Source: Candidatus Zixiibacteriota bacterium
Lineage (GTDB): Bacteria; Zixibacteria; MSB-5A5; UBA10806
DNA: 56,622 nucleotides
Assembly: GCA_020344055.1 (NCBI GenBank)
Contig: CP070813.1
Span: 540,326-596,947 of the forward strand
Direction of reading: 5' to 3'
Shown piece after piece: positions 16,642-55,724 of this stretch. Positions within the stretch are counted from its first letter, which is position 1. Each line of letters opens with the position of its first letter. The position numbers were made by a program, and so were the translations under genes. The notes under the pieces were generated by a model. That model made no database searches. It was not told where the DNA came from and was given only the letters and a program-made list of their open reading frames with translations.

Positions 16642-18351
16642 GTGTTAACAATAGAGATTGTAGACGACATTGCGGCTTTCGCGCGGCTGAAACCGATCTG
16701 GAACGATTTGCTGCGCCAGAGCCGGAATTATAATATCTTCATTTCCTTCGAGTGGCTTTACAGTTGGTGGCAGGTTTTTGGAGAGGGACGCCGGCTTTAC
16801 ATTCTCCTCGTTAGATCGGATGATGAGATCGTGGGTATCGCTCCGTTGATGCGAAGTCCCGGAGCAAAAAAAACCGTGATTGAATTTATAGGCACACCCG
16901 ACAATGATTATTCGGATTTTATCTTATCAGGCGAGAGCGAGAACATCGTTAACAAAATAATATCATATCTTCTGGAGCGTAAATGGGATTGGTCGGTTTT
17001 GAATCTTAGCCAGATTCCTGATTCGTCTCCGACGATTTCAATATTGGAGGGGATAACCGATTCATGGAAAAACAAATGCTTCATAAGGCAGGGCGATTTA
17101 TGTCCCACTTATATTTATGAGGGATCGGATGAAAAGAGGGGGGAATTTTCCGTAAAAATAAGCAGAAGGCATAAACCCAAAATAAATTACTTCAAAAAAA
17201 ACGGAGAGCCGGAAATCCATTACATTGGAGATCCCGAAAAGATTGAACGGAGATTAACAGATTTTTATACATTTCATATAAACCGCTGGCGCGGCACGAA
17301 TACGCCAAGCAATTTTACTCAGAAACGTTATCGCGATTTTTATTCCGGATTGATTCGGGAACTGGGAAGCGAAAAGAGAATTTTCTTGATGGAAATGATT
17401 TATAATTCAAGGCCGGTGTCGTTTTACCTTGGTTTTAATTTCGAAACGGTGGTTTATCTATATACGCCGACATATAACGTATATTACAGGAAATACTCTC
17501 CGGGCGAGATTATACATTATTACATTCTGGAATATTTTATCAGGAATGGATTTAATGAGGTGAATCTGGGCCGCGGTGGAGAGCCATATAAATATAGGTT
17601 TTCAAACAAGATCCGCTCCAATTATCGGGTCACGATGTACCGAAGCACCTTATCTTTTTTTATGGCGTTGTTATATAACAAATTGAGAGGCCTTTATATT
17701 ATCAATACGCTAAAAAAGCGATGGAACATTCGACGTTATTTGGAAGCGTTACGGCGAATTCTCCGAGGAGGAGGTTTGCTAAATATGATAAAGGGCATTT
17801 TTATCCGGTTTCTAAAGATGCTTTACGATTATAGAGGCGTTTTTCTTTTTGAAAGCTATAAGATTCAGGAGGCTTGCGAAAATTCCGGTATTTCGTTACA
17901 TAAGCTCGAAAGCGATAGGGCGGATGAAATATGCTCATTTTTGGGGTATACTATTGACTCAAGCGATCATAATAATATTCTGGCCAGACTGGACATGAAC
18001 CGGCAATGTCTGGCGGCGAAGCATCATGATTCTATCATCGGGCTATGCTGGTTATCCTATGACGAGATGCGCCTGGATGAAATAAACCGGACGATACGGT
18101 TATCCGATAATGAGGCCTTTGCATATGACCTGAATATTTCGCCTGTATTTAATGAGCAGGATATTTATTTCTTTTTATTAGCGCGCCTCGCAGCTGACCT
18201 TCAGCCTAAAAATATCAAACTGCTGATTTCGTGCAAATCTGATGATACCGTTATGATCTCCAGGCTCCAACAGGCAGGATTCAAATTGAACCGGGCCCTT
18301 CGATATGTTAGAATTCTGGGTATAAAAGTGTATACGCGCGGGCGGAATTAA
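16642..18351 (+). CDS. FemAB/CelD-like acyltransferase with an extra C-terminal GNAT-like domain
   Basis: A 569-residue protein. Residues 1-340 fit the FemAB-like/CelD (Acetyltransf_6) family: 'WNDLLRQSRNYNIFISFEWL' near the start, then the late block 'SFYLGFNFETVVYLYTPTYN' and 'EVNLGRGGEPYKYRFSNKI'. These enzymes transfer acyl or aminoacyl groups in exopolysaccharide and peptidoglycan pathways. Residues 385-565 form a second part with GNAT-like features: 'LAAKHHDSIIGLCWLSYDEM', and 'LQQAGFKLNRALRYVRILGI' at the end. A basic, Tyr/Arg-rich linker (about 335-385) joins them. The start is GTG with a strong GAGGAG. It has its own promoter and probably acts on the locally made polysaccharide. Confidence 0.7.
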   Translation: MLTIEIVDDIAAFARLKPIWNDLLRQSRNYNIFISFEWLYSWWQVFGEGRRLYILLVRSDDEIVGIAPLMRSPGAKKTVIEFIGTPDNDYSDFILSGESENIVNKIISYLLERKWDWSVLNLSQIPDSSPTISILEGITDSWKNKCFIRQGDLCPTYIYEGSDEKRGEFSVKISRRHKPKINYFKKNGEPEIHYIGDPEKIERRLTDFYTFHINRWRGTNTPSNFTQKRYRDFYSGLIRELGSEKRIFLMEMIYNSRPVSFYLGFNFETVVYLYTPTYNVYYRKYSPGEIIHYYILEYFIRNGFNEVNLGRGGEPYKYRFSNKIRSNYRVTMYRSTLSFFMALLYNKLRGLYIINTLKKRWNIRRYLEALRRILRGGGLLNMIKGIFIRFLKMLYDYRGVFLFESYKIQEACENSGISLHKLESDRADEICSFLGYTIDSSDHNNILARLDMNRQCLAAKHHDSIIGLCWLSYDEMRLDEINRTIRLSDNEAFAYDLNISPVFNEQDIYFFLLARLAADLQPKNIKLLISCKSDDTVMISRLQQAGFKLNRALRYVRILGIKVYTRGRN

Positions 18352-18519
18352 AGTGGAGCCTGGAAACCAAGTTCGCGCTGGATAGGTTTAATAGAGATTA
18401 GAGTTCTTTGCAATAAATAACTGAATTTTGCCGTAAGATTTTGCGTGGATTATTCCGATAATAGCCTTGGGAGCTACGACGGCAAGATCGATTCTTCACT
18501 CGAGTTAAGGAGGCTTTTC

Positions 18520-21033
18520 ATGCTGGTTAGAATTCTATTATTTTTGCTAATAAGCTCGACCTCGTGGGGATATATAATAACGACGGAGGACAACGTGACG
18601 TTGGAGTCGTTATCTCCGACGTCACGTGATACGGTTATAATTGCGGGAGGGGATACGGTACGTGTGGTGGGCAGCTGGCGGGCGTTGGATAGCGACACGA
18701 CCTGTCTGGCGATGTATGTTCGTGAGGGTGGGGTGTTGCAGTGGGTGGGGGGTTCCCGGGCCAATTTTGGATCATTATGGCTGGGAGGCAAGAGCGGATT
18801 TCCGTTTTCATCGGGGGGTGGCGGCAGGCTTTACATGTCATCGGGAGACACTCTGGGTTTGTGGAACACCAATGTTTTGGGGTCTGAGGATTTCAACTTC
18901 CGGGGAGGCGACTGTGGTGTACATATAGATGGGGGCTCGGCTTCCAGCCGGGCGGTGGTGATGGGGATGTCGGCCTGGAGCCGGCCGTATATATACAACG
19001 GTCAGTCGGATGGCGTATTCGAGGTGAATTATGCGAGGTTTTACCGTCTGGGGACCGACACCTGGACTCCGGGGATTACCCTGGGGAGCAGTGGTTCTCC
19101 TCGGACGGGATCCGGGGGTTTGATCGGTCACAGCGTATTTGATTCGGCGGGTGTATATTTTTATGGTGCCGGTGCCACGGTGGTTGACGGTTGTTCATTA
19201 TATGTTGATCATGACTGGCCTTATTCTCCTTTGTATCTGTACGGTTCGAAGGATACGGTCCGTGGCAGTTACATAGAGCATGACAACCGGAATTATCCGA
19301 CTCCGCACGGCAGTTACATGATGTTGAGGATTTACGCGGACAGTTCGTACATTTACAATACCGCTCTGGTGAATGTGAACACCAACGGAGAGGGTGGCCG
19401 TGCGGAGTACGGAGTGAGGCTATACGCCAATTACGTGACGTTGCGGGGTGTGACGGTTGACGGGTGTGTATGGGGCATCAACTCCAACGGTGACAAGCAT
19501 GACATATTGATAGACGGTTGTTTGATAATCAACAACAAGCATGAGGGCATATTGCGATTGGGCAACGGCGGGGATTCGTGCTGGACCATTCAGGGGAGCG
19601 TGTTTCGTGGCAACGGTCATGAGGTGGGTAGCGGGTACGCGGCGCTTTTGATGAACACCGGTCCTGATGATCCGGAGTATCTGGATTACCGGATATTGTA
19701 CAATACATTTTGTGATTATCTGGGTGGCGACATACCGGTATCATTCCGGAACCATGTGGGAGGAGTTTTTACATCCAGCGGTGTCTGGATGGTGGGTAAC
19801 ATATTTATCGGCAATTACTGCGACATCAGGATAGCCAGTTTTGCGGGGGGCACCGTAACGCGGGTGGAGTTTGAGGAGTTCAAGGACAACGCCTATGATT
19901 ATCTCAGGATTGAATCGGGCTGTTCGGTATGGATCAAGGATAATGCTTATGCCATATCGGATTCGAATCTGGACGACCAGAGCCAGTACGGTTTTGTGGA
20001 TTCGGCGGGATATGATTTCAGGTTGGCGGTTGGATCACCGATGCTGGATGCGGGGGATTCGTTGTACTGGGCGCAGGTATTTGGCGGTGGGGATGATGAT
20101 CCGGGTAATATCGGATATTACCAGGGTCCCGGTGTTGATCCCGGCAATCCCATTCAGGAGGGTTATGTAGATTCGTTGCACAACGATTATACGGGGGAGG
20201 AGGATTCGGTGCTGATCCGTTATGTGACGGGATCACAGAGCTGGCCGGACAGTGTGGTGGTGGCGTTATCGACTTTGGGTTTTCCCGACAGCGCGGCCTC
20301 CAGCCGGCTGGCGAGGGTATACAATCCCAACTCCACCGACACCCTGTTTGCGGTGGTCAGCGTCGATGAGCCGGGGTCGCTGTTCGTGAGCCTCTGGACC
20401 AAAGACCAGCAGAACAACTGGTCCTCCAGACATACCGCCTCCACCTTCTTCGACTCGGGGATCGGCATTTATGATATATTCCACATATCCGACGTATTGA
20501 GCATCGATCCCGACTCCATAAGATTGATCGTCGGCAATATAGTTCCCTCACCGTTTTATGACACCACGATAATGCGTTATGGCGATCATCTCCCCCTGGA
20601 CATATCCGATGGCTCTCTTTTATTGAGCGGCGGCCTGATTATAAATGACACAATGGATTGCCTAATTGATTTTAATCAACCCGGCTGGCTTTATATCAGG
20701 GCTTTTGCGAGTATAGAAAACTCGGGATGGTTTATCATAGGCACTGATAGCGCCTATATCAATGATACAATGCCGGGACAATGCGAATATGTTGTGGGCG
20801 ATGCCAACAATTCGGGAATTTACAACGGCTTCGATATTACATTTGGCGTCGCCTATTTTAAAGGAAGCGCTCCACCCGCGTACGAGTGTGAATGTACTCT
20901 GGGACAAGTCTGGCATGTAGCCGGCGATGTTAATGCCGACTGCGGCTTTAGCGGTAATGATATTACATATGGAGTGCGTTATTTTAAAGGGGGGCCGGGC
21001 CCGGATCCATGTCCTGACTGCCCCCCGCGCTGA
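18520..21033 (+). CDS. Secreted beta-helix protein with C-terminal dockerin-like doublet
   Basis: A protein of about 837 residues. The ATG at 18520 is chosen because a perfect AAGGAGG (18507-18513) precedes it and it opens directly into the signal peptide 'MLVRILLFLLISSTSWG'; the frame itself opens at 18445. About residues 25-520 form a beta-helix-like region rich in Gly, Asn and Ser. An Ig-like region follows. The last 85 residues hold two dockerin-like repeats, each with calcium-loop spacing: 'GDANNSGIYNGFDITFGVAY' and 'GDVNADCGFSGNDITYGVRY', each ending in 'YFKG'. The tail is Cys/Pro-rich ('GPDPCPDCPPR'). Codon wobble looks different in the beta-helix part and in the C-terminal part. Confidence 0.75.
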   Translation: MLVRILLFLLISSTSWGYIITTEDNVTLESLSPTSRDTVIIAGGDTVRVVGSWRALDSDTTCLAMYVREGGVLQWVGGSRANFGSLWLGGKSGFPFSSGGGGRLYMSSGDTLGLWNTNVLGSEDFNFRGGDCGVHIDGGSASSRAVVMGMSAWSRPYIYNGQSDGVFEVNYARFYRLGTDTWTPGITLGSSGSPRTGSGGLIGHSVFDSAGVYFYGAGATVVDGCSLYVDHDWPYSPLYLYGSKDTVRGSYIEHDNRNYPTPHGSYMMLRIYADSSYIYNTALVNVNTNGEGGRAEYGVRLYANYVTLRGVTVDGCVWGINSNGDKHDILIDGCLIINNKHEGILRLGNGGDSCWTIQGSVFRGNGHEVGSGYAALLMNTGPDDPEYLDYRILYNTFCDYLGGDIPVSFRNHVGGVFTSSGVWMVGNIFIGNYCDIRIASFAGGTVTRVEFEEFKDNAYDYLRIESGCSVWIKDNAYAISDSNLDDQSQYGFVDSAGYDFRLAVGSPMLDAGDSLYWAQVFGGGDDDPGNIGYYQGPGVDPGNPIQEGYVDSLHNDYTGEEDSVLIRYVTGSQSWPDSVVVALSTLGFPDSAASSRLARVYNPNSTDTLFAVVSVDEPGSLFVSLWTKDQQNNWSSRHTASTFFDSGIGIYDIFHISDVLSIDPDSIRLIVGNIVPSPFYDTTIMRYGDHLPLDISDGSLLLSGGLIINDTMDCLIDFNQPGWLYIRAFASIENSGWFIIGTDSAYINDTMPGQCEYVVGDANNSGIYNGFDITFGVAYFKGSAPPAYECECTLGQVWHVAGDVNADCGFSGNDITYGVRYFKGGPGPDPCPDCPPR

Positions 21034-42421: not shown

Positions 42422-43831
42422 ATGAAGAACACCACAAAATTCCTGGCATTTGCGATGGGTTTTGCGCTACTGGCATTTGGCTGTAGCGGTGTGCAGAAGC
42501 CGGTGGAACCGGAGGTTCCGGGATTTATCGAAACCGCCGACCTGGCCATTCCAGATGGTGCCACTCTGGTATCGGCCACGTTTTATATTTACGCTCATTA
42601 TATCAGCGGCCAGACTGTGACCGTACACAGGATCACCGCTCCGTGGGATGAGAGCGTGGTCACTTACGCCAATTTCGGCAACGCCTACGATCCGGCAGTA
42701 TGGGGCTCTTTTACAGTCACCGCCGCCGGGTATCAGTCGGCTGATATTACCTTGTTGGTTCAGAGTTGGCTGGATGGGACCTATGACAACTACGGCATTC
42801 TGCTCATGCAGGGAGTCACCCCTTATACCTATTATGCATCCAGCGAGATCGGCGATGTTAACATGCGCCCGGCGCTGGAAATCTGCTATTCGCTGGGAGG
42901 CACGCAGTGCGTGACCATAAAGCGCGGCGTTTACGGCGAAGTACAGGACGCCTTTATTCTTGAGACGGTCCCCAATTTCAATTCCGGTGACGGCACCGAA
43001 CTCTACACCGGTCTGGTCTATGATTCGGAGAAGTTCAGCCTGCTTCAATTCGATCTTTTATTGGCAGCCATCGGCGATACTGTCTGGATCGACGAAAACC
43101 GGAACGGTATCCAGGATGCCGGCGAACCGGGAATGCCGGATGTGACCGTCAATCTTTATGATTGCCAGGACAGCCTGATCGCCACCACCACAACCGACGG
43201 TGACGGTTTTTATATCTTTGACAATCTTGCGCCCGGCGATTACTACGTGGAATTCATCGCCCCCGAAGGCTACGATATAACCCTTCAGGATCAGGGTAGC
43301 GACGACGCGGTTGACAGTGATGCCGATCCGGCCACCGGTCTGACGATCTGCACCACTCTCGACGCCGGCGAATACGACCCCACCTGGGATTGCGGGTTGT
43401 ATCTGATGGAGCAGGAAGGCTGCACCCTGACTATCGGGTTCTGGAAAACCCATGCCGGTTTCGGCCCGCAGGCCAATGTAGTAAGCCAGTACCTGCCGAT
43501 CTGGCTCGGCAACGCGGGCGGTTCGGAAAGCATCAATGTCGCCGATTCCGTCATTGCTCATGATATTCTCATGCGCAATGTTTACGGCCGCAACAGCAAC
43601 GGCATAACCAAGCTTTATGCCCAGCTGCTAGGGTCGAAACTGAATATCGCGGCCGGCGCCGACGACACCGACGTTGCCGCGGTTATTGCCGCCGCCGACG
43701 ATTTCCTGGCTGACCACTACTACACCGACTGGAACTCTTTAAATAAGCCGACCAAGCATATGGTCTTAGGCTGGATGTCGGATCTCGACGACTACAACAA
43801 CGGTATCACCGGCCCGGGCCACTGCGATTAA
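42422..43831 (+). CDS. Predicted surface lipoprotein with DNRLRE-like, SdrD B-like and 'FWKTH' domains
   Basis: A 469-residue exported protein. The signal sequence ends 'FALLAFGCSG', with a possible lipidated Cys21. Residues about 38-160 match the second half of a DNRLRE domain ('IPDGATLVSATFYIYAHYIS', 'WDESVVTYANFG'). About 165-215 resemble the first half of the same domain, ending 'FSLLQFDL'. About 217-325 are an SdrD B-like domain ('IGDTVWIDENRNGIQDAGEP', 'GFYIFDNLAPGDYYVEF'). About 332-469 start 'CTLTIGFWKTHAGFG', a module often found beside SdrD B domains. It has its own sigma-54-type promoter and a terminator, and sits directly before the exosortase. There is no PEP-CTERM tail. It is likely a structural surface protein. 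Confidence 0.75.
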   Translation: MKNTTKFLAFAMGFALLAFGCSGVQKPVEPEVPGFIETADLAIPDGATLVSATFYIYAHYISGQTVTVHRITAPWDESVVTYANFGNAYDPAVWGSFTVTAAGYQSADITLLVQSWLDGTYDNYGILLMQGVTPYTYYASSEIGDVNMRPALEICYSLGGTQCVTIKRGVYGEVQDAFILETVPNFNSGDGTELYTGLVYDSEKFSLLQFDLLLAAIGDTVWIDENRNGIQDAGEPGMPDVTVNLYDCQDSLIATTTTDGDGFYIFDNLAPGDYYVEFIAPEGYDITLQDQGSDDAVDSDADPATGLTICTTLDAGEYDPTWDCGLYLMEQEGCTLTIGFWKTHAGFGPQANVVSQYLPIWLGNAGGSESINVADSVIAHDILMRNVYGRNSNGITKLYAQLLGSKLNIAAGADDTDVAAVIAAADDFLADHYYTDWNSLNKPTKHMVLGWMSDLDDYNNGITGPGHCD

Positions 43832-44069: not shown

Positions 44070-44927
44070 ATGAGATTGAGTCCGGACAATAAGAGCTTGG
44101 CAATCCACTGGGGCAAGCATAAATATCCCTATATCTTAATCGGGTTGATAACGTTGATAAACATCACTGTCTTTAAAGATCTCGTTTCGGTCTGGATAAA
44201 CAACGGCAATTATTCGCATGGATTTTTCATAATTCCGATAGCGACATATTTATTCTGGAGAGAGAGAAAAGAGCTGGTATTTCCATCCCGGCCGGCCGGA
44301 ATGGGAATTTTCCTGTTCGCGCTGGGATCTATAGGGTCGATAGTCGGAATCGCGGCAAGCGAGCTTTTTACCTCGAGGCTTTCGCTCCTGTTTATTATCT
44401 GGGGAGTATCTCTTTATTACCTGGGGAACCGGAATTTTAAAAAGGTCTGGTTTCCGTTCGCGTTTTTGATTTTCATGGTGCCGATTCCGGCGGTTGTCTA
44501 TTATTCGGCCACTTTACCCATGCAGTTATTTTCGAGTAAAATAACCGATGCGGTACTTCGTGTTATAGGAATGCCCTCCGTCAGGCAGGGCAATATCATA
44601 TATTTGCCCCAGTACACGCTGGAAATAGTCGAGGCCTGCAGCGGGCTGCGGAGCCTGGTTTCGCTTTTGGCCCTGAGCGCATTATATGGATACCTGACGC
44701 TCGCCGGCGTTATTCGTCCTCTTATTCTTTTTATGGCCGCGATACCGATCGCGATCATTATCAATATATTTAGATTGTTATTGACCGCCGTAATGGCATA
44801 TTCCATAAGCCCGGAATTCGCGGATAGTTTCATCCACGATGTTTCCGGACTGATAGTTTTCATAGTCGCTCTTATTCTGGTAGTAATTACAGGGACGATT
44901 TTAAAATGGTCAAGAAAACCTTCGTAA
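44070..44927 (+). CDS. xrtA: Exosortase (XrtA/EpsH-like transpeptidase)
   Basis: A 285-residue membrane protein with about eight helices. Family marks are 'GNYSHGFFIIPIATYLFWRE' (about 46-65) and the catalytic Cys190 in 'EIVEACSGLRSLVSLLAL', Arg235 in 'INIFRLL' and His256 in 'SFIHDVSG', i.e. the Cys/Arg/His triad of exosortases. These enzymes cut PEP-CTERM proteins and attach them at the surface, usually together with exopolysaccharide genes. ATG at 44070 follows AAAGGGG without spacing; a TTG at 44076 would give better spacing and may be the true start. Its end overlaps the EpsI-like gene by 22 bases. The A-type assignment rests on neighbouring genes. Confidence 0.85.
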   Translation: MRLSPDNKSLAIHWGKHKYPYILIGLITLINITVFKDLVSVWINNGNYSHGFFIIPIATYLFWRERKELVFPSRPAGMGIFLFALGSIGSIVGIAASELFTSRLSLLFIIWGVSLYYLGNRNFKKVWFPFAFLIFMVPIPAVVYYSATLPMQLFSSKITDAVLRVIGMPSVRQGNIIYLPQYTLEIVEACSGLRSLVSLLALSALYGYLTLAGVIRPLILFMAAIPIAIIINIFRLLLTAVMAYSISPEFADSFIHDVSGLIVFIVALILVVITGTILKWSRKPS

Positions 44928-45535
44928 TATTTCTCCTGGTGCAGATCCTGGTTTTCCTGTTTGGATTCGCCATTAAGCGTTTTCAACCGGATGTATCAAA
45001 TGTCGTCAATATTGACGATTTTCCTTTGGAAAAGGACGGCTGGATCGGCGCCAGAGATGATTTAATACCGGAAATGGTCGAAATGCTCAATCCCTCCGTC
45101 ATTTTTTCCGCGACATATACGAACAGGGAAGGGGTTCCGGTGCATCTGTTTTTCGATTATTTTAGAGGCCAGAGCAATCCCGGAGGACCTCATTCGCCCC
45201 GCAATTGCGTGCCGGGATCGGGCTGGACGATTCTGGAGGAGACCGAACGGGAAATAAAGATAGATAATCGCTTCATAGAAATCGGGAGCTTCAATATAAA
45301 CAGGGGCGGATCAACAATGATCATGGATTTCTGGTATATTACCAGATATGGCGAAACCGCCAACGATTATATATTTAAACTTTACAGCATGATAAGTTCC
45401 CTGACTTTCAAACCCAACGATGTGGCTTTTGTCAGGATTATCTATAACGGCGATGAAGAGGACCTCCGGTTTTTGGACGAATTTGAAAATTTATTCGTGG
45501 AGGAAATTTACAGACATCTGAATTTTGAATTATAA
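44906..45535 (+). CDS. epsI: EpsI-family exosortase-associated protein
   Basis: A 209-residue protein with one N-terminal membrane helix (about 5-23) and an external domain. The block 'PHSPRNCVPGSGWTILEE' (about 95-112) matches the EpsI/DUF3485 signature, whose Cys is conserved. In many exosortase A proteins this domain is fused to the C-terminus; here it is a separate gene overlapping xrtA by 22 bases, so the two are surely co-expressed. EpsI proteins are needed for exopolysaccharide production in methanol-utilising Methylobacillus. The exact biochemical role is unknown. Confidence 0.85.
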   Translation: MVKKTFVIFLLVQILVFLFGFAIKRFQPDVSNVVNIDDFPLEKDGWIGARDDLIPEMVEMLNPSVIFSATYTNREGVPVHLFFDYFRGQSNPGGPHSPRNCVPGSGWTILEETEREIKIDNRFIEIGSFNINRGGSTMIMDFWYITRYGETANDYIFKLYSMISSLTFKPNDVAFVRIIYNGDEEDLRFLDEFENLFVEEIYRHLNFEL

Positions 45536-45698
45536 ATCATAGACCGGAAATTCTATAATAATGTGATATTCATTAAATGTTATATGCGGTATCCGATAAT
45601 AATAACTGGATCTTTGCGGAGGGAGTCTGAGTTTGACATTTCGTAATGGTTATTATATTTTGGATTCGTTTAATCGGAGGGAAGGTTCAGGTTAGTTG

Positions 45699-47210
45699 AT
45701 GAACATTTTTTTACTCAGTGATTTTTTGATAAATTCGGCAACGGAATATCCCGATAAAATCGCGTTGTATTTCGGCGATGATTCTTACAGCTATGCCCGG
45801 CTATACCGGTATTCCCGGAATCTGGCAGGATTTATTTCTGCAAGCGGATTTAAAAAAGGCGATCGGGTTATCACCTACCTGGAGAACAGTCCGGAAACGG
45901 TCATTTCCATGTTCGGATCTCTTCTGGCGGGAGGCGCCTTCTCGGTGGTGAATCAGACCATAAAGGCGCATAAGCTGGCCTATATCATAGGGAATTGCGC
46001 GCCGAAATTCATCGTTACCGACAGCGCCCGGGTGGACGCGTTAAGGGAGTTGCGCTCGCAGGTCAATTTACCGCCGTTAATTTTGATCGACGGTAAAGTC
46101 GAAGGCACCTATGATCTTCGAGAGATTATTAATGGCGATCTGGAGCCTCCGGCCATGCGGATCGTTGATCTCGATCTGGCAGCGATTATTTACACCTCCG
46201 GATCGACCGGCGATCCCAAGGGGGTGGCGTTGAGTCATCGGAATATGGTAACGGCGGCGCGGTCGATTACGCAGTATCTCGAAAACGTGACCTCGGATAT
46301 AATTCTGGACGTTCTGCCGTTGTCTTTCGATTACGGTCTTTACCAGGTGCTTATGGCGTTTTTATTTTCCGGCACCGTGGTTCTGGAGAAAAAATTCGGT
46401 TATCCTTTCAAGCTTATCAAGCTGATTCAATCCAGAAAGGTGACAGGATTGCCATGCGTGCCCACGATGATGGCCATATTCCTGCAGATGGAGGGGCTGG
46501 AGAAGAAGGATCTTTCAAGCGTGCATTATATAAGCAATACCGGGGCCGCGTTGCCGCCCAGTTATATTCCCCGGCTGAATAAGATATTTCCAAATGCCAG
46601 GATTTATTCGATGTACGGGCTTACCGAATGTAAACGGGTCGCTTATCTTCCGCCGTCGATGATAGAAAAGAAGCCGGATTCGGTGGGGATCGCCATGCCC
46701 AATACCGAAGTCTACGTGATCGATGATAAAGGCGAGATCAGAGAACGGGACGCCATGGGGGAACTGGTGGTCAGGGGATCGAATGTTATGAGGTGTTACT
46801 GGAACGATCCCGAGGGGACCGCGAAGGTGCTCCAACCGGGTCGATACCCCTGGGAGCAGGTGCTTCATACGGGCGATCTGTTCCGGATCGATGAGGACGG
46901 TTTTCTCTATTTCAAGGGCCGGATGGACGATATCATTAAATGCCGCGGTGAGAGAGTGTCGCCCAAGGAAATAGAAAATGTGCTTTATGAACTGGAGGAC
47001 TTGGTCGCGGTCAGGGTCACCCCAGTCCCCGATGAGATAATGGGTAATGCCATAAAGGCGGAGGTGGTAAGGAAGCCGGGATCGAATATCTCGATCGATG
47101 AGATCCTTCGTCACTGCCGGGAAAATCTCGAGGATTTAATGCTTCCGAAATATATAGAGATAGTCGAGAGCCTTCCCAAATCGGAATCCGGGAAAATATT
47201 AAAAAAGTAG
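45699..47210 (+). CDS. AMP-forming acyl ligase, exosortase A-system type
   Basis: A protein of about 503 residues of the ANL adenylation superfamily. It has the P-loop-like 'IIYTSGSTGDPKGVALSHRN' (about 164-183), 'YSMYGLTECKRVAYLPP', the hinge 'LHTGDLFRIDEDGFLYFKGR' with 'MDDIIKCRGERVSPKEIENV', and the final catalytic Lys in 'PKSESGKILKK'. Ligases like this, named exosortase A system-associated, load an acyl or aminoacyl group, probably onto the carrier protein encoded 2 kb downstream. An in-frame TTG precedes the ATG at 45699 by one codon. The 160-base gap after epsI leaves room for a promoter, but I see none that is convincing. Confidence 0.85.
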   Translation: MNIFLLSDFLINSATEYPDKIALYFGDDSYSYARLYRYSRNLAGFISASGFKKGDRVITYLENSPETVISMFGSLLAGGAFSVVNQTIKAHKLAYIIGNCAPKFIVTDSARVDALRELRSQVNLPPLILIDGKVEGTYDLREIINGDLEPPAMRIVDLDLAAIIYTSGSTGDPKGVALSHRNMVTAARSITQYLENVTSDIILDVLPLSFDYGLYQVLMAFLFSGTVVLEKKFGYPFKLIKLIQSRKVTGLPCVPTMMAIFLQMEGLEKKDLSSVHYISNTGAALPPSYIPRLNKIFPNARIYSMYGLTECKRVAYLPPSMIEKKPDSVGIAMPNTEVYVIDDKGEIRERDAMGELVVRGSNVMRCYWNDPEGTAKVLQPGRYPWEQVLHTGDLFRIDEDGFLYFKGRMDDIIKCRGERVSPKEIENVLYELEDLVAVRVTPVPDEIMGNAIKAEVVRKPGSNISIDEILRHCRENLEDLMLPKYIEIVESLPKSESGKILKK

Positions 47211-47258
47211 TATATATACTGGGGCATAGTTTTGAGTATAAGCGACCGGGACCATTAG

Positions 47259-49250
47259 ATGTGTGGCATAGCGGGATATTTCAACCTTAGAGATGAATCG
47301 CCTCCCGACCGCGAATTGATCGGCCGGATGGTGAATATGATCCGGCACCGGGGGCCGGATGAATTCGGGGCGTATGTAGATAATCGATGCGCGCTGGGGC
47401 AGGCGCGGCTATCAATCATTGACCTGGCCACCGGTTCTCAACCCCTTTCCAACGAGGATGAGACGTTATGGATTACATTCAATGGCGAGATTTTCAATTA
47501 TATTGAGCTCCGCGGCGAACTGGAGAAAAAGGGGCACAGATTCAAGACTCGTTCCGATACCGAGGTGATCGTTCATTCATACGAGGAGTGGGGGGAAGAG
47601 TGCCTGAATCGATTCAACGGGCAGTTCGCTTTCGCATTATATGATAGAAAGGCAAAAAGCCTGTTTATCGCCAGAGACAGGTTGGGTATCAGGCCAGTTT
47701 TTTATACCGAGCTTAACGGCCGCTTTTATTTCGCTTCGGAGATAAAATCGATTTTCTGCGAGCCGGCGATACTACGGAGATTGGATTATCAGGGACTGGA
47801 CGAGATCTTCACCTGGTGGACGACATCCCCACCAAAGACGGCGTTCGAGAAGATCAATGAGCTCGAGGCGGGGACCTATCTCGAGATAAAGGATGGGCTG
47901 CTTCGGAAAAAACAGTACTGGTTTATGAATTTCCCCACTGAATTTGATTTGAGTCGGGATCTCGAATCCTGGGCCGAAGAGCTTCATGCTCTGCTTGTCG
48001 ACGCTGTCAGATTAAGACTGCGTGCGGACGTTCCCGTAGGGGCGTATCTTTCGGGGGGTCTGGATTCATCGGCCACCACGGCCCTGATAAGGAACTTCAC
48101 GGACACCAGAGTGGAGACTTTTTCCATCGCTTTTCACGATAAGGCTTACGACGAATCGGATTATCAGAACCAGATGGCTGAATTTCTCGGCACCAATCAC
48201 CATCAGATAAAATGCTCCTACAAGGATATCGCGGAGAATTTCCCGAAGGTTATCTGGCATACGGAGCGGCCGATCCTCCGGACCGCCCCCACGCCCCTTT
48301 ACATGCTGTCCGATCTGGTACGGGGGAATAATTTCAAAGTGGTTTTGACTGGTGAGGGTTCGGACGAGATTCTGGCGGGTTACGATGTCTTCAAGGAAAC
48401 CCTAATCCGCAGTTTCTGGGCCAAAGACCCTGATTCGGAATGGAGGCCGGCGTTATTGAAAAGGCTCTATCCCACATTGCCGCTTTCGGCATCGAGGGCC
48501 AGATTTTATCTGGAGACTTTTTATAAATCAGGTCTTTCCGAGTCGGAAAAGTTTTATTTTTCTCATATTCCCAGGATAAACACCACCACCAGGATAAAGG
48601 ATTATTTTACCGACGATGTTAAATCGTCGCTGATGGGCTATGATTCGGTAGGATCTTTTAAAGGCCATATACCGGAATCTTTCTATAAATGGCGCCAGCT
48701 TTTAAGGGCGCAATATCTTGAAGCGAGATCCTTGCTGTCAGGCTATCTTTTATCGTCACAGGGGGACCGGGTATCGGCGGCCAATTCCATCGAAGGGAGG
48801 TACCCGTTTCTGGATTATAGGGTCGTGGAGCTGGGAGCGAGAATTCCGACCTGGTACAAGATAATGGGACTCAAGGAGAAACTGGTCTTGAAAAAGGCGA
48901 TGAAAAAAGAGCTTCCCCCGGAAATCACGCAAAGAGTCAAGCAGCCGTACATGGCGCCGGATTCCAACAGCTTTTTTCAAGAAGATTCCCCCTCTTATAT
49001 AAAGGATATGCTCTCCGGGACATCTTTAAAGAAGACGGGGGTATTTAATCCCGATTACGTCTCCAAGCTTTCGGAAAAATGCGCGAGGCTTTATCACGCC
49101 CACCTGTCGTTCAAGGATAACATGTCCTTTATAGGGATTTTGTCCACTCAACTTCTGATAAACCAGTATATCGATAATTTTATTCCGGCCGCGTCCTTGA
49201 ACAAGGATTCCTACAAGGTGTGGCACGATTTTTCCGAACGGGCCAGATAA
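47259..49250 (+). CDS. Asparagine synthase-like glutamine amidotransferase, exosortase-associated type
   Basis: A 663-residue AsnB homologue. The N-terminal class II glutaminase starts at the catalytic Cys2 ('MCGIAGYFNLRD') and carries 'MIRHRGPDEFGAY' and 'WITFNGEIFNYIELRGEL'. The C-terminal synthetase domain has the PP-loop 'AYLSGGLDSSATTALI' (about 265-280) and 'VVLTGEGSDEILAGYDVF'. It converts a carboxylate to an amide with glutamine-derived ammonia. Homologues lie in exosortase A loci as 'amidotransferase 1'. Here it is 48 bases behind the ligase. I infer it amidates a sugar acid or an acyl group destined for the exopolysaccharide rather than free aspartate. Confidence 0.88.
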   Translation: MCGIAGYFNLRDESPPDRELIGRMVNMIRHRGPDEFGAYVDNRCALGQARLSIIDLATGSQPLSNEDETLWITFNGEIFNYIELRGELEKKGHRFKTRSDTEVIVHSYEEWGEECLNRFNGQFAFALYDRKAKSLFIARDRLGIRPVFYTELNGRFYFASEIKSIFCEPAILRRLDYQGLDEIFTWWTTSPPKTAFEKINELEAGTYLEIKDGLLRKKQYWFMNFPTEFDLSRDLESWAEELHALLVDAVRLRLRADVPVGAYLSGGLDSSATTALIRNFTDTRVETFSIAFHDKAYDESDYQNQMAEFLGTNHHQIKCSYKDIAENFPKVIWHTERPILRTAPTPLYMLSDLVRGNNFKVVLTGEGSDEILAGYDVFKETLIRSFWAKDPDSEWRPALLKRLYPTLPLSASRARFYLETFYKSGLSESEKFYFSHIPRINTTTRIKDYFTDDVKSSLMGYDSVGSFKGHIPESFYKWRQLLRAQYLEARSLLSGYLLSSQGDRVSAANSIEGRYPFLDYRVVELGARIPTWYKIMGLKEKLVLKKAMKKELPPEITQRVKQPYMAPDSNSFFQEDSPSYIKDMLSGTSLKKTGVFNPDYVSKLSEKCARLYHAHLSFKDNMSFIGILSTQLLINQYIDNFIPAASLNKDSYKVWHDFSERAR

Positions 49251-49416
49251 TAGTTGAATAATTGACATTAACGGAATAAATTTCGAGCTTGAATAAAGAA
49301 TATCTGGATGAGGTCGAAACTTGTTCTGGGATAGTTAAGTTCAAATACCGGTAAAATAATTGATCGATCAAAACGCCTTGCTTACGGCTCAAGCCAGATA
49401 GATTTCAGGAGGGATC

Positions 49417-49665
49417 TTGGAGATTCGGGAAAAGATTAGAGATTTCATTACGGATAATTTTATGATGGGTATGAATCCGGAGAGTCTTACTGACGGAGAT
49501 TCATTGCTGGATAAAGGAATAGTGGACTCGACGGGGGTCCTCGAGCTAATAGGGTTTCTGGAGGAGAGTTTTGAAATTCAGATCGACGACGAGGAACTTA
49601 TACCTGAAAACCTCGATTCCGTGGTAAACCTGGTCGATTTTGTCAACCGCAAGAAAGCCAGTTGA
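49417..49665 (+). CDS. Acyl carrier protein
   Basis: An 82-residue acidic phosphopantetheine carrier. The prosthetic-group Ser lies in 'LDKGIVDSTGVLELIGFLEE' (about residue 39), where the usual D-S-L is D-S-T. Start TTG at 49417, with AGGAGG four bases upstream. It lies between the amidotransferase and NAD-synthase-like genes and behind the adenylating ligase. The set reads as a loading enzyme with its dedicated carrier. It is not next to fatty-acid synthesis genes, so a specialised role is likely. Confidence 0.88.
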   Translation: MEIREKIRDFITDNFMMGMNPESLTDGDSLLDKGIVDSTGVLELIGFLEESFEIQIDDEELIPENLDSVVNLVDFVNRKKAS

Positions 49666-49668
49666 TTT

Positions 49669-50640
49669 ATGGCTTTGAAATTCTCAAAAGACTTGATTAA
49701 ACTAGACTGCCCCCGGGTTGTGGATGATCTTGTAGAAAAGCTTAACCAAAATGTTTATACCAATTTTCGGCGTCAGGGCGCCGTGGTCGGGACCTCCGGC
49801 GGCGTGGATTCATCGGTGGTGGCGGCGTTGTGCGTGAAGGCCTTTGGCCCGGACAAGGTGCTGGGCGCCATATTGCCGGACCAGGACAACTCCCCGGAAT
49901 CGACGGAATTCGCGGTCAGGCTGGCAAAGAAACTGGGTTACGAATATGTCATAGATGATGTCACGGCGCCGCTCGAGGCCGCGGGATGCTATAAAAACCG
50001 GGATGACGGATTCAGGATGGTATTTCCGGAATGGAGGGAAGGCTGGAAAGCCAAGATAGTTTTGCCCTCCAACCTTCTCGAATCCGGCAGGATGAACGTT
50101 TTCCGGCTGGCGGTGGAGTCTCCTGACGGCGAGAAGATGGAGAAACGCCTTCCCCTGAAAGCGTATCTGAATATCGTGGCGGCATCCAATATGAAGCAGC
50201 GCATAAGGATGCTTACACTATATTACGAGGCGGAAAAACGCAACTATGCCGTTATCGGTACGGCCAATAAAAATGAGTACGAGCAGGGATTCTTCGTTAA
50301 ATACGGCGACGGCGGCGTGGATATCAAGCCTATAGTGGGTTTCTACAAGACCCAGATATTTCAGCTCGCGGAGTACCTGGATATACCGAAGGAGATACGT
50401 TCCAGGACGCCGTCGGCGGAAACATATCCGTCGGATGTAAGCCAGGAGGAGTTCTTTTTCGGGCTAGATTTTAAGATTATGGATCAATTGTGGTTCGCCA
50501 AGGAAGGCGGATTCGCCATCGATGACGTTGCGGAGGTAACGGGGTTGACGGTCGAACAGGTGGAGAGGGTATGGCACGACCTGGATCAGAAGAAACGAAC
50601 CACGGAGTACCTCAGGCATCCGCCGATATTATTTAAATAA
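49669..50640 (+). CDS. NAD(+) synthase-like ATP pyrophosphatase in the exosortase locus
   Basis: A 323-residue homologue of ammonia-dependent NAD synthases. The PP-loop is 'GAVVGTSGGVDSSVVAALC' (about 38-56), and the downstream 'VIGTANKNEYEQGFFVKYGD' with 'GGVDIKPIVGFYKTQIFQLA' matches the NadE core. A segment of about 60 residues (about 100-160, including 'GMLK'-free basic stretches such as 'GWKAKIVLPSNLLESGRMN') makes it longer than typical NadE. There is no fused glutaminase. It starts three bases after the carrier protein stop, so they are coupled. It could be the cell's only NAD synthase, but this placement suggests a dedicated adenylating amide or amine ligase acting on the carrier-bound group. 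Confidence 0.75.
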   Translation: MALKFSKDLIKLDCPRVVDDLVEKLNQNVYTNFRRQGAVVGTSGGVDSSVVAALCVKAFGPDKVLGAILPDQDNSPESTEFAVRLAKKLGYEYVIDDVTAPLEAAGCYKNRDDGFRMVFPEWREGWKAKIVLPSNLLESGRMNVFRLAVESPDGEKMEKRLPLKAYLNIVAASNMKQRIRMLTLYYEAEKRNYAVIGTANKNEYEQGFFVKYGDGGVDIKPIVGFYKTQIFQLAEYLDIPKEIRSRTPSAETYPSDVSQEEFFFGLDFKIMDQLWFAKEGGFAIDDVAEVTGLTVEQVERVWHDLDQKKRTTEYLRHPPILFK

Positions 50641-54233: not shown

Positions 54234-55724
54234 TTGAAAACGCTGATATTGATAACGCTACTTTGCGGGAGCCCAATATGGGCGGGTGATCTAACCGTGC
54301 CGCCCGGCTATGAGATCGTGAAGGTCGAAGGCAACCGGGTGGAGATTAAAGACTTAACGACCGGCTATATTACGCCATACTGGACCAATTTCGAGAGAGA
54401 TTCATTAGACATTCCTGTTATCGACGACACCGAGGATGAAACACCGCGGGCATGGTATTACCTGGAGACATTGGCGACTCTTCCCTGGTTTGTGTATGTG
54501 GTTACCGGCGACCTGAATAATTCCGGTTTTGCGGAAATCTACGGTAGATATCAGGGTGAAGCATATCTGGATACCCTGGTTACTCCCTGGCAGTTTGACC
54601 ATATAAGCCTGGACAATCTCGGCGCGCCTGAATACCTTGGAGATACCGATCTCGACGGCAAGGGCGAATTATTGACATTAAGAGACGACGGTTTTTATCT
54701 TTACGAATCACCTGCATACAACAGCTATCCCGAAAGCCTCATATGGTATTATGCCGATAATATATACCAGGAAAGAGACGCTAAATTGGGCGATACCGAC
54801 GGAGACGGCTTTGGCGAAGTATTGTTCTACTTTGGCCAGCGGGCCTTAGGCTACCAGATATTCGAGCTTGACAGCACGGGCAATTATACTTGGAGGACGG
54901 CGATTCCTTTTTTCGACCATGTATATGATTACACCGGAGAAGCGAGCTTCGGCGATGTCGACGGTGACGGATTAACGGAAATCTTCGCCGGAGGGATTCA
55001 CGGTGAGGTTATCGTTTATGAGAATACGGCAGACGATTCATTTGAATTTGTCTGGATGGATTCGGTAGGGACGCCCGACGCCTATTCCACCGAGTTCCTG
55101 GGGGATACCGACGGCGACGGATATAACGAATTTATGGTGGCCGCCAATTATATTTTTGGATCCGGCATATTGTTTAGTATATACGAAGCGGAATCTAACA
55201 ATAATTATAGGATGGTTTATAATAACAATATACATGGTTATTGGGCGTCCAGGGGAGATATATGGGTGGGCGATTTTACGGGCGATGGATATAATGAGAT
55301 CGCGCTCGGAACCGGTACCAGCATAATGATATTGCGCGCTATTGAGGACAACGACTGGAAGGAGCTTATAAGATATAGAAATGAAGTCACTTTCGATATT
55401 TACAATTACAAGATCAGCAGTAGCTATCCGAATTTCCTGTTAAATGTAATTTGGTCTACCGACTGGATAATGAAATTGCTTGCTGTTGGGGATTCGTTTT
55501 TACCAGGGGACGTTAGTAATAACGGAGGTCTAAATGGAATAGACGTAGTCTACCTGGTTTCAAATTTGAAAACCGGCATGCCGCCGATTCAAAGCCCCGA
55601 AATTAGGGCGGATGCCAACGGTGATTGCGAGGTTAATCTCGTCGATGTAACTTATCTTGTTAATTATTTCAAGGGCAGGTTACCGGCTCCTGAGCCGGGC
55701 TGGTGTCCTTATCTTGATGAATAA
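54234..55724 (+). CDS. Secreted FG-GAP/VCBS-like beta-propeller protein with dockerin-like C-terminus
   Basis: A 496-residue exported protein with signal peptide 'MKTLILITLLCGSPIWAG'. The middle (about 90-400) holds repeated Asp-rich calcium-loop motifs of FG-GAP/VCBS type: 'GDLNNSGFAEIYGRY', 'GDTDLDGKGELLTLRDDG', 'GDTDGDGFGEVLFYF', 'GDVDGDGLTEIFAGGIHG', 'GDTDGDGYNEFMVAAN' and 'GDFTGDGYNEIALG'. The C-terminus has two dockerin-like repeats, 'GDVSNNGGLNGIDVVYLVSN' and 'ADANGDCEVNLVDVTYLVNY', then 'FKG' and a Cys-Pro ending 'PGWCPYLDE'. The start is TTG with a strong AGGAGG. It is probably surface-exposed. No cohesin partner is in the window. Confidence 0.8.
   Translation: MKTLILITLLCGSPIWAGDLTVPPGYEIVKVEGNRVEIKDLTTGYITPYWTNFERDSLDIPVIDDTEDETPRAWYYLETLATLPWFVYVVTGDLNNSGFAEIYGRYQGEAYLDTLVTPWQFDHISLDNLGAPEYLGDTDLDGKGELLTLRDDGFYLYESPAYNSYPESLIWYYADNIYQERDAKLGDTDGDGFGEVLFYFGQRALGYQIFELDSTGNYTWRTAIPFFDHVYDYTGEASFGDVDGDGLTEIFAGGIHGEVIVYENTADDSFEFVWMDSVGTPDAYSTEFLGDTDGDGYNEFMVAANYIFGSGILFSIYEAESNNNYRMVYNNNIHGYWASRGDIWVGDFTGDGYNEIALGTGTSIMILRAIEDNDWKELIRYRNEVTFDIYNYKISSSYPNFLLNVIWSTDWIMKLLAVGDSFLPGDVSNNGGLNGIDVVYLVSNLKTGMPPIQSPEIRADANGDCEVNLVDVTYLVNYFKGRLPAPEPGWCPYLDE

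What the first reader, a model, noticed from the sequence alone, without database searches (positions are those of the whole stretch)
44070..50640. Exosortase module carrying a dedicated ligase, carrier protein, amidotransferase and an NAD-synthase homologue
The sequence shows, all on the plus strand, XrtA (Cys/Arg/His triad), a separate EpsI protein, an adenylating ligase, an AsnB-like amidotransferase, an acyl carrier protein and an NadE-like ATP pyrophosphatase. Ligase, carrier and amidotransferase are known exosortase A partners. The NadE homologue, only three bases behind the carrier protein and carrying an insertion relative to typical NadE, is not a standard member. Two independent PP-loop enzymes plus a carrier suggest synthesis of an amidated acyl or aminoacyl decoration. 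This is inference and could describe an unreported surface-modification pathway.
Basis: partly seen in the sequence, partly recalled or inferred. Interest (0 to 1): 0.75.

Follow-up and report, generated by a model that had tools for sequence, protein, structure and literature searches.

The report
Repurposed NAD-synthase cassette for surface sugars
This Zixibacteria genome carries, beside an exosortase gene, a set of four genes (an activating ligase, a carrier protein, a glutamine amidotransferase and an NAD-synthase look-alike) that recurs in related genomes and in nitrogen-fixing rhizobia; the look-alike probably does not make NAD, and the set likely builds an amide-bearing group predicted to be put on cell-surface sugars.

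Summary
The genome has a second, ordinary nadE, so this NadE-like protein is an extra paralogue. It belongs to NCBIfam NF002048 (425 bits, cut-off 313). It keeps the NadE fold and the ATP/adenylation residues, but has about 55 extra residues, a hydrophobic residue at E. coli Lys261 and a changed loop. The exosortase frame does not hold: over the phylum and on alphaproteobacterial plasmids the recurring unit is NadE-like + carrier + AMP ligase + AsnB, in changing order. An exosortase was found within 10 kb in only 3 of 79 phylum loci (many cut by contig ends) and in 0 of 12 alphaproteobacterial loci, though both tend to occur in the same genomes. New here: in 20 of 22 genomes with a second NadE-like type the cassette AsnB is missing, whereas 44 of the other 49 have it, which suggests that a NadE-like enzyme can replace the amidotransferase. 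Polysaccharide markers flank 16 of 37 cassette loci. A Sinorhizobium operon very probably of this kind is in print; the passages seen give no product. Best reading: a carrier-dependent amide-forming pathway, probably for surface-glycan decoration; substrate and product unknown.

The parts
44070..44927 (+). exosortase (EpsH family); lineage-specific neighbour, not part of the recurring cassette
   Evidence: PF09721 225.4 bits; TIGR03109 188.5 bits against cut-off 208; within 10 kb of a NadE-like gene in 3 of 79 loci
44906..45535 (+). EpsI, exosortase-associated protein
   Evidence: PF11984 and TIGR02914
45696..47210 (+). AMP-forming acyl/aminoacyl ligase of the cassette
   Evidence: PF00501/PF13193; best NCBIfam match TIGR03098, below cut-off; best PDB match linear gramicidin synthase, 252.7 bits
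47259..49250 (+). AsnB-like glutamine-dependent amidotransferase of the cassette, Cys2 present
   Evidence: PF00733/PF13537; relatives at 48% identity or more in 52 of 132 phylum genomes at E 1e-130 or better; best PDB match 7ylz hydroxyamidotransferase
49417..49665 (+). acyl carrier protein of the cassette
   Evidence: PF00550 21.9 bits against cut-off 20.8; Asp37-Ser38 kept in at least 97% of 74 aligned carrier rows, the window counted twice
49528..49530 (+). Ser38 codon, predicted phosphopantetheine attachment site
   Evidence: conserved DS motif; role of the motif from established knowledge
49669..50640 (+). NadE-like ATP pyrophosphatase, predicted amide synthetase
   Evidence: NF002048 425.1 bits, cut-off 313; AlphaFold pLDDT 91.6; NadE fold
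49987..50148 (+). inserted segment (residues about 107-160) with Tyr108, Arg111, Pro120, Asn143 and Arg160 kept in 90% or more of each NadE-like group

Best explanation
The ligase, carrier protein, AsnB-like amidotransferase and NadE-like enzyme form a recurring four-gene cassette that likely makes a carrier-bound, amide-bearing acyl or aminoacyl group, predicted to decorate surface polysaccharide, and the NadE-like member probably activates a carboxylate other than that of deamido-NAD. Proposed steps: the ligase adenylates a small carboxylic or amino acid and loads it on the carrier (inferred here; PMC7232532 states that co-expressing the Sinorhizobium ligase SMb20650 gave acylated carrier SMb20651 in E. 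coli). AsnB (from glutamine) and the NadE-like enzyme (from ammonia or an amine) each activate a carboxylate with ATP and form an amide (inferred from family chemistry). In some lineages a second NadE-like type would take AsnB's place. A GNAT- or FemAB-type acyltransferase would then transfer the group to a glycan (inferred from neighbouring genes). The exosortase is a neighbour in this genus.
For: Second, canonical nadE in the genome; canonical nadE also read from 13 other NadE-like genomes. ATP/Mg residues kept (SGGxDS in 99-100 of 101 rows; Arg140, Arg142, Thr160, Glu165 and Lys189 in 101 of 101) while Lys261 is Leu/Ile/Phe in 101 of 101 (Lys in 21 of 22 canonical) and Leu214 is Thr in 101 of 101 (Leu in 22 of 22 canonical). 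The canonical rows are one side of a branch in the tree, support 99. Carrier or ligase within 6 kb in 30 of the 32 phylum loci with 6 kb on both sides. All four genes in 12 of 12 alphaproteobacterial plasmid loci examined, S. meliloti twice among them. Cassette AsnB in 46 of 71 NadE-like genomes against 6 of 61 others. Exchange: AsnB in 2 of 22 genomes with the N2 type, in 44 of the 49 other NadE-like genomes. Polysaccharide markers in 16 of 37 cassette loci against 0 of 20 control stretches. A GNAT-type or remotely GNAT-like protein within about 2.5 kb of the cassette in 9 of 12 alphaproteobacterial loci.
Against: No substrate, product or phenotype is known. The NadE-like protein passes the general nadE model TIGR00552 (168.2 bits, cut-off 63.65) and keeps Arg140, Lys/Arg173 and Asp180, three deamido-NAD sites that I recall from HAMAP. 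AsnB passes the asparagine synthase model TIGR01536 and is the only match to itself at E 1e-30 in its genome, so it could simply make asparagine; I did not look for another asparagine route. 21 of 37 cassette loci show no polysaccharide marker, and the Sinorhizobium cassette lies beside min genes. G090 and G112 have both AsnB and the N2 type; G014, G021, G031, G062 and G079 have neither by my counts; the counts are not corrected for shared ancestry. The GNAT partner is not universal.
Confidence: 0.5

Rival explanations
1. The cassette makes a small soluble amide or peptide (osmoprotectant, siderophore-like or signalling molecule), or just asparagine and a derivative of it, that is not attached to a glycan.
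For: Sinorhizobium and Mesorhizobium cassettes show no polysaccharide genes in the annotated stretches. AsnB passes the asparagine synthase model TIGR01536 and resembles the N-acetylglutaminylglutamine amidotransferase model TIGR03104 (369.3 bits, below its cut-off 570.1); it is the only such gene found in the window's genome.
Against: Polysaccharide markers in 16 of 37 phylum loci against 0 of 20 control stretches; glycosyltransferases and a polysaccharide deacetylase beside the Azospirillum cassettes.
Confidence: 0.27
2. The NadE-like protein is a real second NAD synthase (or NMN synthetase) that happens to sit beside carrier genes.
For: TIGR00552 above cut-off; NadE fold, with the F. tularensis NMN synthetase 3fiu among the best matches; ATP and several substrate-side residues kept.
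Against: Canonical nadE elsewhere; Lys261 lost and Leu214 changed to Thr in 101 of 101, about 55 extra residues; recurring linkage to carrier, ligase and AsnB in two phyla.
Confidence: 0.1
3. A dedicated exosortase-A accessory module: the four genes make a group needed for exosortase substrates.
For: Contiguity in this genus and in G112; genome-level co-occurrence, 61 of 71 against 29 of 61; exosortase 22-29 kb away on the same contig in G028, G040, G021 and G083 (coordinates); one PEP-CTERM protein in the genome.
Against: Within 10 kb in 3 of 79 loci and 0 of 12 plasmid loci; G025, G026, G079 and G107, each a single contig (completeness 95, 80, 83 and 74%), have NadE-like, carrier and ligase genes but no exosortase of 100 bits or more.
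Confidence: 0.08
4. The NadE-like PP-loop enzyme moves sulfur (thioamide or thioacid formation) rather than nitrogen.
For: Weak match to the LarE sulfur-transferase model, 30 bits.
Against: Clear NadE-type match and fold; exchange with an AsnB amidotransferase points to nitrogen transfer.
Confidence: 0.04

Closest known systems
Sinorhizobium meliloti pSymB ligase/carrier pair SMb20650-SMb20651 and its operon (PMC7232532, passages read; Ramos-Vega 2009, cited there, not held)
   Same: Adjacent AsnB, carrier, AMP ligase and NadE-like genes; 47, 41, 46 and 43% identity to the window proteins.
   Different: Order AsnB-carrier-ligase-NadE, no exosortase in the stretch, beside min genes. That L122 is this operon is inferred; that the 2009 abstract names asnB and nadE1 is recalled.
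Exosortase-A partner genes TIGR03098 (ligase) and TIGR03108 (amidotransferase)
   Same: Among the two best NCBIfam matches of the cassette ligase and AsnB, in Sinorhizobium too.
   Different: All below the curated cut-offs; the partner set is not known to me to include a NadE homologue (recalled).
NAD synthase, NadE (PF02540)
   Same: Fold, P-loop and adenylation residues.
   Different: About 55-residue insertion, Lys261 to Leu/Ile/Phe, Leu214 to Thr, gene linkage.
F. tularensis NMN synthetase (PDB 3fiu)
   Same: A NadE relative titled NMN synthetase in the PDB; fold match at target TM 0.87, a precedent for substrate change.
   Different: Shorter (238 residues in the chain); no carrier-protein linkage known to me (recalled).
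Dlt system (D-alanylation of teichoic acids)
   Same: Works alike in outline: ligase plus dedicated carrier feed a surface-polymer decoration (recalled).
   Different: No amide synthetases (recalled); DltB/DltD-type transferases were not looked for here.

Membership tests
NAD synthase NadE | NadE fold with SGGxDS P-loop and adenylation residues | tested here: met
   also TIGR00552 over cut-off
NAD synthase NadE | conserved substrate-side residues, with Lys261 and Leu214 (E. coli numbering) | tested here: not met
   Lys261 and Leu214 are replaced in 101 of 101 NadE-like proteins; Arg140, Asp180 and Lys/Arg173 are kept. Assignment of these sites to deamido-NAD is recalled from HAMAP.
NAD synthase NadE | makes NAD from deamido-NAD | not testable with these tools
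   needs an enzyme assay
NCBIfam NF002048 (PRK00876 subfamily) | score over the curated cut-off | tested here: met
   425.1 bits, cut-off 313
Exosortase A (XrtA, TIGR03109) | score over the curated cut-off | tested here: not met
   188.5 bits, cut-off 208
Exosortase/PEP-CTERM system | EpsH-family protein and at least one PEP-CTERM substrate in the genome | tested here: met
   PF09721 225.4 bits; one PF07589 match, a 236-aa protein ending in VPEP, a hydrophobic stretch and RKRKRS
Exosortase-A partner ligase TIGR03098 and amidotransferase TIGR03108 | scores over the curated cut-offs | tested here: not met
   440.7 of 592.35 and 474.8 of 816.9 bits
Asparagine synthase (TIGR01536) | score over the curated cut-off (AsnB-like protein) | tested here: met
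   521.8 bits, cut-off 267.1; activity not testable here
AsnB/carrier/ligase/NadE-like cassette (Sinorhizobium type) | all four genes adjacent, NadE-like over NF002048 | tested here: met
   window; Sinorhizobium
AsnB/carrier/ligase/NadE-like cassette (Sinorhizobium type) | ligase acylates the neighbouring carrier | not testable with these tools
   reported for SMb20650/SMb20651 in PMC7232532; not shown for the window's pair

The most novel reading that the evidence does not exclude
A widespread class of carrier-protein-dependent amide synthesis in which a NAD-synthase fold has been recruited, twice, to amidate carrier-linked acyl groups for surface glycans: one NadE-like type is the near-constant core enzyme, and a second type can replace the glutamine amidotransferase outright, so an ammonia-dependent and a glutamine-dependent amide synthetase trade places in the same pathway.
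Probability: 0.4. Interest if true: 0.72.

Novelty: new variant of a known kind. Interest (0 to 1): 0.55.

Why it matters
Proteins of this subfamily are annotated 'NAD(+) synthase' in databases, which may hide a pathway present in about half of the phylum's genomes searched (71 of 132) and in many rhizobial plasmids. If right, it would show that NadE chemistry was reused for amide decoration, and it makes the orphan Sinorhizobium carrier SMb20651 testable: the AsnB/N2 exchange predicts amide formation, and the carrier gives a handle to catch the intermediate by mass spectrometry.

Tried and rejected
Exosortase-specific module: rejected as the general frame, because adjacency is lineage-specific although genome-level association exists. 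NadE-like as the sole NAD synthase: rejected. Literature: no held paper has exosortase + NAD synthase + acyl carrier protein, exosortase + amidotransferase + acyl carrier protein, or Zixibacteria + exosortase; nadE + asnB + acyl carrier protein gave one phytoplasma review (listing only); (four of five terms) gave none. The library lacks most subscription journals. A haloarchaeal plasmid match is ordinary NadE by its annotation and weak score and was left out. Promoter patterns were at the chance level and terminator patterns little above it; not used. The only genome-contig scan gave three loci, one of them a distant relative at 25%. The last protein search listed mostly unnamed or Zixibacteria proteins, plus one called Terriglobales, and added no safe taxonomic breadth. 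How far the cassette reaches beyond these two phyla is therefore not known.

Choices that bear on counts: NadE-like rows cover more than 250 profile positions; shorter fragments were left out of the 101. N1/N2 labels came from score thresholds. The N2-clade set of 22 genomes was then taken from the tree, so it includes four genomes (G100, G101, G102, G107) with a single NadE-like gene placed there at 80-88% support. Without these four the count is AsnB in 2 of 18 against 44 of 53. In one search only AsnB matches at E 1e-130 or better count, so AsnB genes cut by contig ends (G062, G031) are scored absent. Of the six genomes with AsnB but no NadE-like match over the cut-off, two (G022, G046) hold NadE-like genes cut by contig ends. 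'Exosortase of 100 bits or more' is my own cut. Loci L006 and L007 repeat L102 and L104 and were not counted. Several genomes give more than one of the 79 loci. The polysaccharide markers were named by eye from their translations, without a family search. The window was left out of the 37 marker loci because seven markers came from it (the eighth, Wzz-like, came from L098, which is too short to be among the 37). The 20 control stretches were placed by me at arbitrary positions in eight genomes.
Full report
1. What is there. The window lies at 540326-596947 of a 3.83-Mb single-contig genome. Its closest named relatives are Zixibacteria (86% identity to CP070742.1, Candidatus Zixiibacteriota); that the unnamed 'phylum' genomes are Zixibacteria is inferred from this. 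On the + strand stand an EpsH-family exosortase, EpsI, an AMP-forming ligase, an AsnB-like amidotransferase, a carrier protein and a NadE-like protein. Trigger factor, ClpP and ClpX follow by the look of their translations (no family search run).

2. Is it the genome's NAD synthase? Probably not. A full-length canonical nadE (260.4 bits to PF02540) lies at C1:3459814-3460533. The window protein belongs to NF002048, 425.1 bits against a cut-off of 313. In 132 genomes of the phylum, 71 hold a match over that cut-off; of the tool's 14 control genomes 1 does. I read 21 canonical genes from the phylum: the window genome's own, 13 from other genomes that also hold the NadE-like gene, and 7 from genomes without it.

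3. How it differs. I aligned 101 NadE-like proteins (89 from the phylum, 12 from alphaproteobacterial plasmids; fragments left out) with 22 canonical NadE (21 from the phylum and E. coli). The ATP and Mg residues are kept. Consistent changes: Lys261 (E. coli numbering) is Leu, Ile or Phe in 101 of 101 and Lys in 21 of 22 canonical; Leu214 is Thr in 101 of 101 and Leu in 22 of 22; Thr172 is Val or Cys in 101 of 101 and Thr in 21 of 22. The span E. coli 110-136 is 76-78 residues long instead of 22 (20 of 22 canonical; the others 26 and 61), with residues inside it kept across the family (Tyr108, Arg111, Pro120, Asn143, Arg160 of the window protein). Against a loss of nucleotide binding: Arg140 and Asp180 are kept in 101 of 101 and position 173 is Lys or Arg in 101 of 101 (I recall these as deamido-NAD sites of HAMAP). 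Only 3 and 7 of the 22 canonical enzymes have Lys173 and Asp180, so these two sites do not discriminate. In the tree the canonical rows are one side of a branch with support 99, and the 101 NadE-like rows are together with support 99; three canonical-labelled rows (L123-L125) branch nearest to them, and long branches were warned of.

4. Structure. AlphaFold gave mean pLDDT 91.6 and pTM 0.90. Foldseek finds the NadE fold first (2e18, 1xng, 3fiu; target TM 0.83-0.87). 3fiu carries the title NMN synthetase, a precedent for a NadE relative with another substrate. The inserted part is a helix and strands, with a hairpin at 146-160.

5. The recurring unit. Around 79 NadE-like loci of the phylum, counted whatever their contig length, a carrier lies within 6 kb in 60, a ligase in 61, an AsnB in 28, a second NadE-like gene in 15, and an exosortase within 10 kb in 3. 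Many of these loci are cut by contig ends. In the 32 loci with at least 6 kb on both sides the numbers are 26, 27, 12, 9 and 1, and 30 of 32 have carrier or ligase. Of 164 neighbouring pairs of cassette genes less than 1 kb apart, 157 are on one strand. The order changes: the commonest are NadE-carrier-ligase-AsnB and NadE-carrier-ligase-NadE2; the window has ligase-AsnB-carrier-NadE.

6. Outside the phylum. tblastn on plasmids finds the protein in 232 records, with at least 80% of it covered in one place in 117; listed hits of 41-47% identity are in Sinorhizobium, Ensifer, Shinella, Rhizobium, Mesorhizobium, Nitratireductor and Azospirillum, and the weaker ones I saw listed look like ordinary NadE. 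In 12 of 12 such loci examined (chosen for genus spread; S. meliloti twice) AsnB, carrier, ligase and NadE-like genes are together, without an exosortase in the 19-22 kb stretch.

7. AsnB and a second NadE-like type exchange. Of 12 genomes whose fetched locus showed no AsnB, seven have one elsewhere at 53-77% identity (G116, G037, G018, G040, G058, G121, G119) and five do not (G089, G077 and G107 no match at E 1e-30; G079 and G102 only matches of 38 and 35%). Over the phylum the cassette AsnB occurs in 52 of 132 genomes. It is present in 2 of 22 genomes with the N2 clade and in 44 of the 49 other NadE-like genomes (Fisher p 4e-11, not corrected for ancestry). With the stricter N2 set it is 2 of 18 against 44 of 53. 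The N2-bearing genomes span 14 genera; in 12 of these no N2-bearing member has AsnB. Exceptions: G090 and G112 have both. I read this as functional replacement, which implies that both enzymes form the same kind of bond; this step is inferred. A caution: in the window's genome the cassette AsnB is the only AsnB found at E 1e-30 and it passes the asparagine synthase model, so plain asparagine synthesis is not excluded for it; I did not search for other asparagine routes.

8. Where the cassette sits. Eight polysaccharide markers, named by eye (glycosyltransferases, flippase, polymerase-like protein, deacetylase, chain-length regulator), hit 16 of 37 cassette loci of 15 kb or more (12 of 37 with two or more markers) and 0 of 20 arbitrary control stretches. 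Azospirillum cassettes follow annotated glycosyltransferases and a polysaccharide deacetylase and are followed by a GNAT-type protein. A 370-aa protein near the cassette in Shinella, Nitratireductor, Mesorhizobium ciceri, two Rhizobium records and S. fredii is a remote relative of it (hhalign E 4e-6, probability 87%), with only marginal GNAT matches in Pfam. In the phylum a FemAB/GNAT-type protein related to window 16642-18351 lies near some cassettes (L062 and L099 at about 0.2 kb; others at 5-6 kb).

9. Exosortase link. EpsH of 100 bits or more (my cut) occurs in 90 of 132 genomes; with NadE-like in 61, NadE-like alone in 10, EpsH alone in 29, neither in 32 (Fisher p 4e-6, not corrected for ancestry). 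On the nine shared contigs that I found the distances are about 5 kb (G000, G115), 1 kb (G112), 22-29 kb (G083, G021, G040, G028), 484 kb (G063) and 1.98 Mb (G089). G025, G026, G079 and G107, each one contig, have NadE-like, carrier and ligase genes and no EpsH of 100 bits; G027 has one of 66.6 bits. The own genome has one PEP-CTERM protein, 3.2 Mb from the exosortase along the contig. So the link is more likely shared polysaccharide biology than a dedicated module.

10. What is published. PMC7232532 (passages read) says that SMb20650, a ligase of S. meliloti pSymB, is cotranscribed with carrier SMb20651, that co-expression gave acylated SMb20651 in E. coli, and that SMb20650 does not replace the fatty-acid ligase FadD. 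PMC5686131 (passage read) says that the function of SMb20651 needs further study. PMC10315480 (passage read) lists smb20650 among genes down-regulated under predation by Myxococcus. PMC7646526 (passages read) mentions a third NadE isoform of A. brasilense without a glutaminase domain that PII did not bind; that this is the cassette protein is only a guess. PMC9386255 and PMC12794305 cite the 2009 paper in their reference lists. The held pSymB record has no gene labels, so that locus L122 is the SMb20650/20651 operon is inferred from gene content. I recall that the 2009 abstract names asnB and nadE1 in the operon; that paper is not held.

11. Mechanism, with marks. Shown: gene content, co-occurrence, exchange pattern, residue changes, predicted fold. 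Reported by others for Sinorhizobium: ligase-dependent acylation of the carrier. Inferred: amide formation by AsnB and NadE-like, transfer by a GNAT/FemAB-type enzyme, glycan target. Unknown: substrate, product, whether the insertion docks the carrier.

12. Verdict. Observation confirmed; interpretation partly supported. It is a new variant of a known kind: a ligase-plus-carrier pathway with a probably repurposed NadE, in print (as far as I saw) as an orphan ligase/carrier pair of one rhizobium, and here found in about half of a phylum's genomes and shown to be modular.

Noticed in passing
L041, L043, L102 (genome G117, same family as the window): One genome holds three NadE-like loci; two of them group with the alphaproteobacterial type in the tree, which suggests horizontal transfer.
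   Followed up: partly
L172:877-1587: A 236-aa PEP-CTERM protein (VPEP, hydrophobic stretch, RKRKRS), the only PF07589 match in the genome, 3.2 Mb from the exosortase along the contig and near a glycosyltransferase-like gene on the other strand.
   Followed up: partly
window 16642-18351: A 569-aa GNAT/FemAB-type protein (PF13480) whose relatives lie near several cassettes in the phylum; candidate transferase.
   Followed up: partly
window 42422-43831: SdrD B-like protein with a DNRLRE/CBM96 domain just upstream of the exosortase, without a C-terminal sorting helix by eye; relatives near NadE-like loci L084 and L103.
   Followed up: no
G000:C1:3765202-3765549: A second, short exosortase/archaeosortase-like match (30.4 bits) in the genome; many phylum genomes show a similar short one.
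   Followed up: no
window 47259-49250: The cassette AsnB is the only AsnB found at E 1e-30 in this genome, and three of the N2-type genomes checked (G089, G077, G107) show none at all, so how these bacteria make asparagine is open.
   Followed up: no
window 54234-55724 and 18445-21033: Large secreted-looking proteins that end in dockerin-like GD.N..G repeats (by eye, translations).
   Followed up: no
L145:4105-5211, L147:3945-5054, L146:10027-11139: An unannotated 370-aa protein family beside alphaproteobacterial cassettes, remotely GNAT-like.
   Followed up: partly
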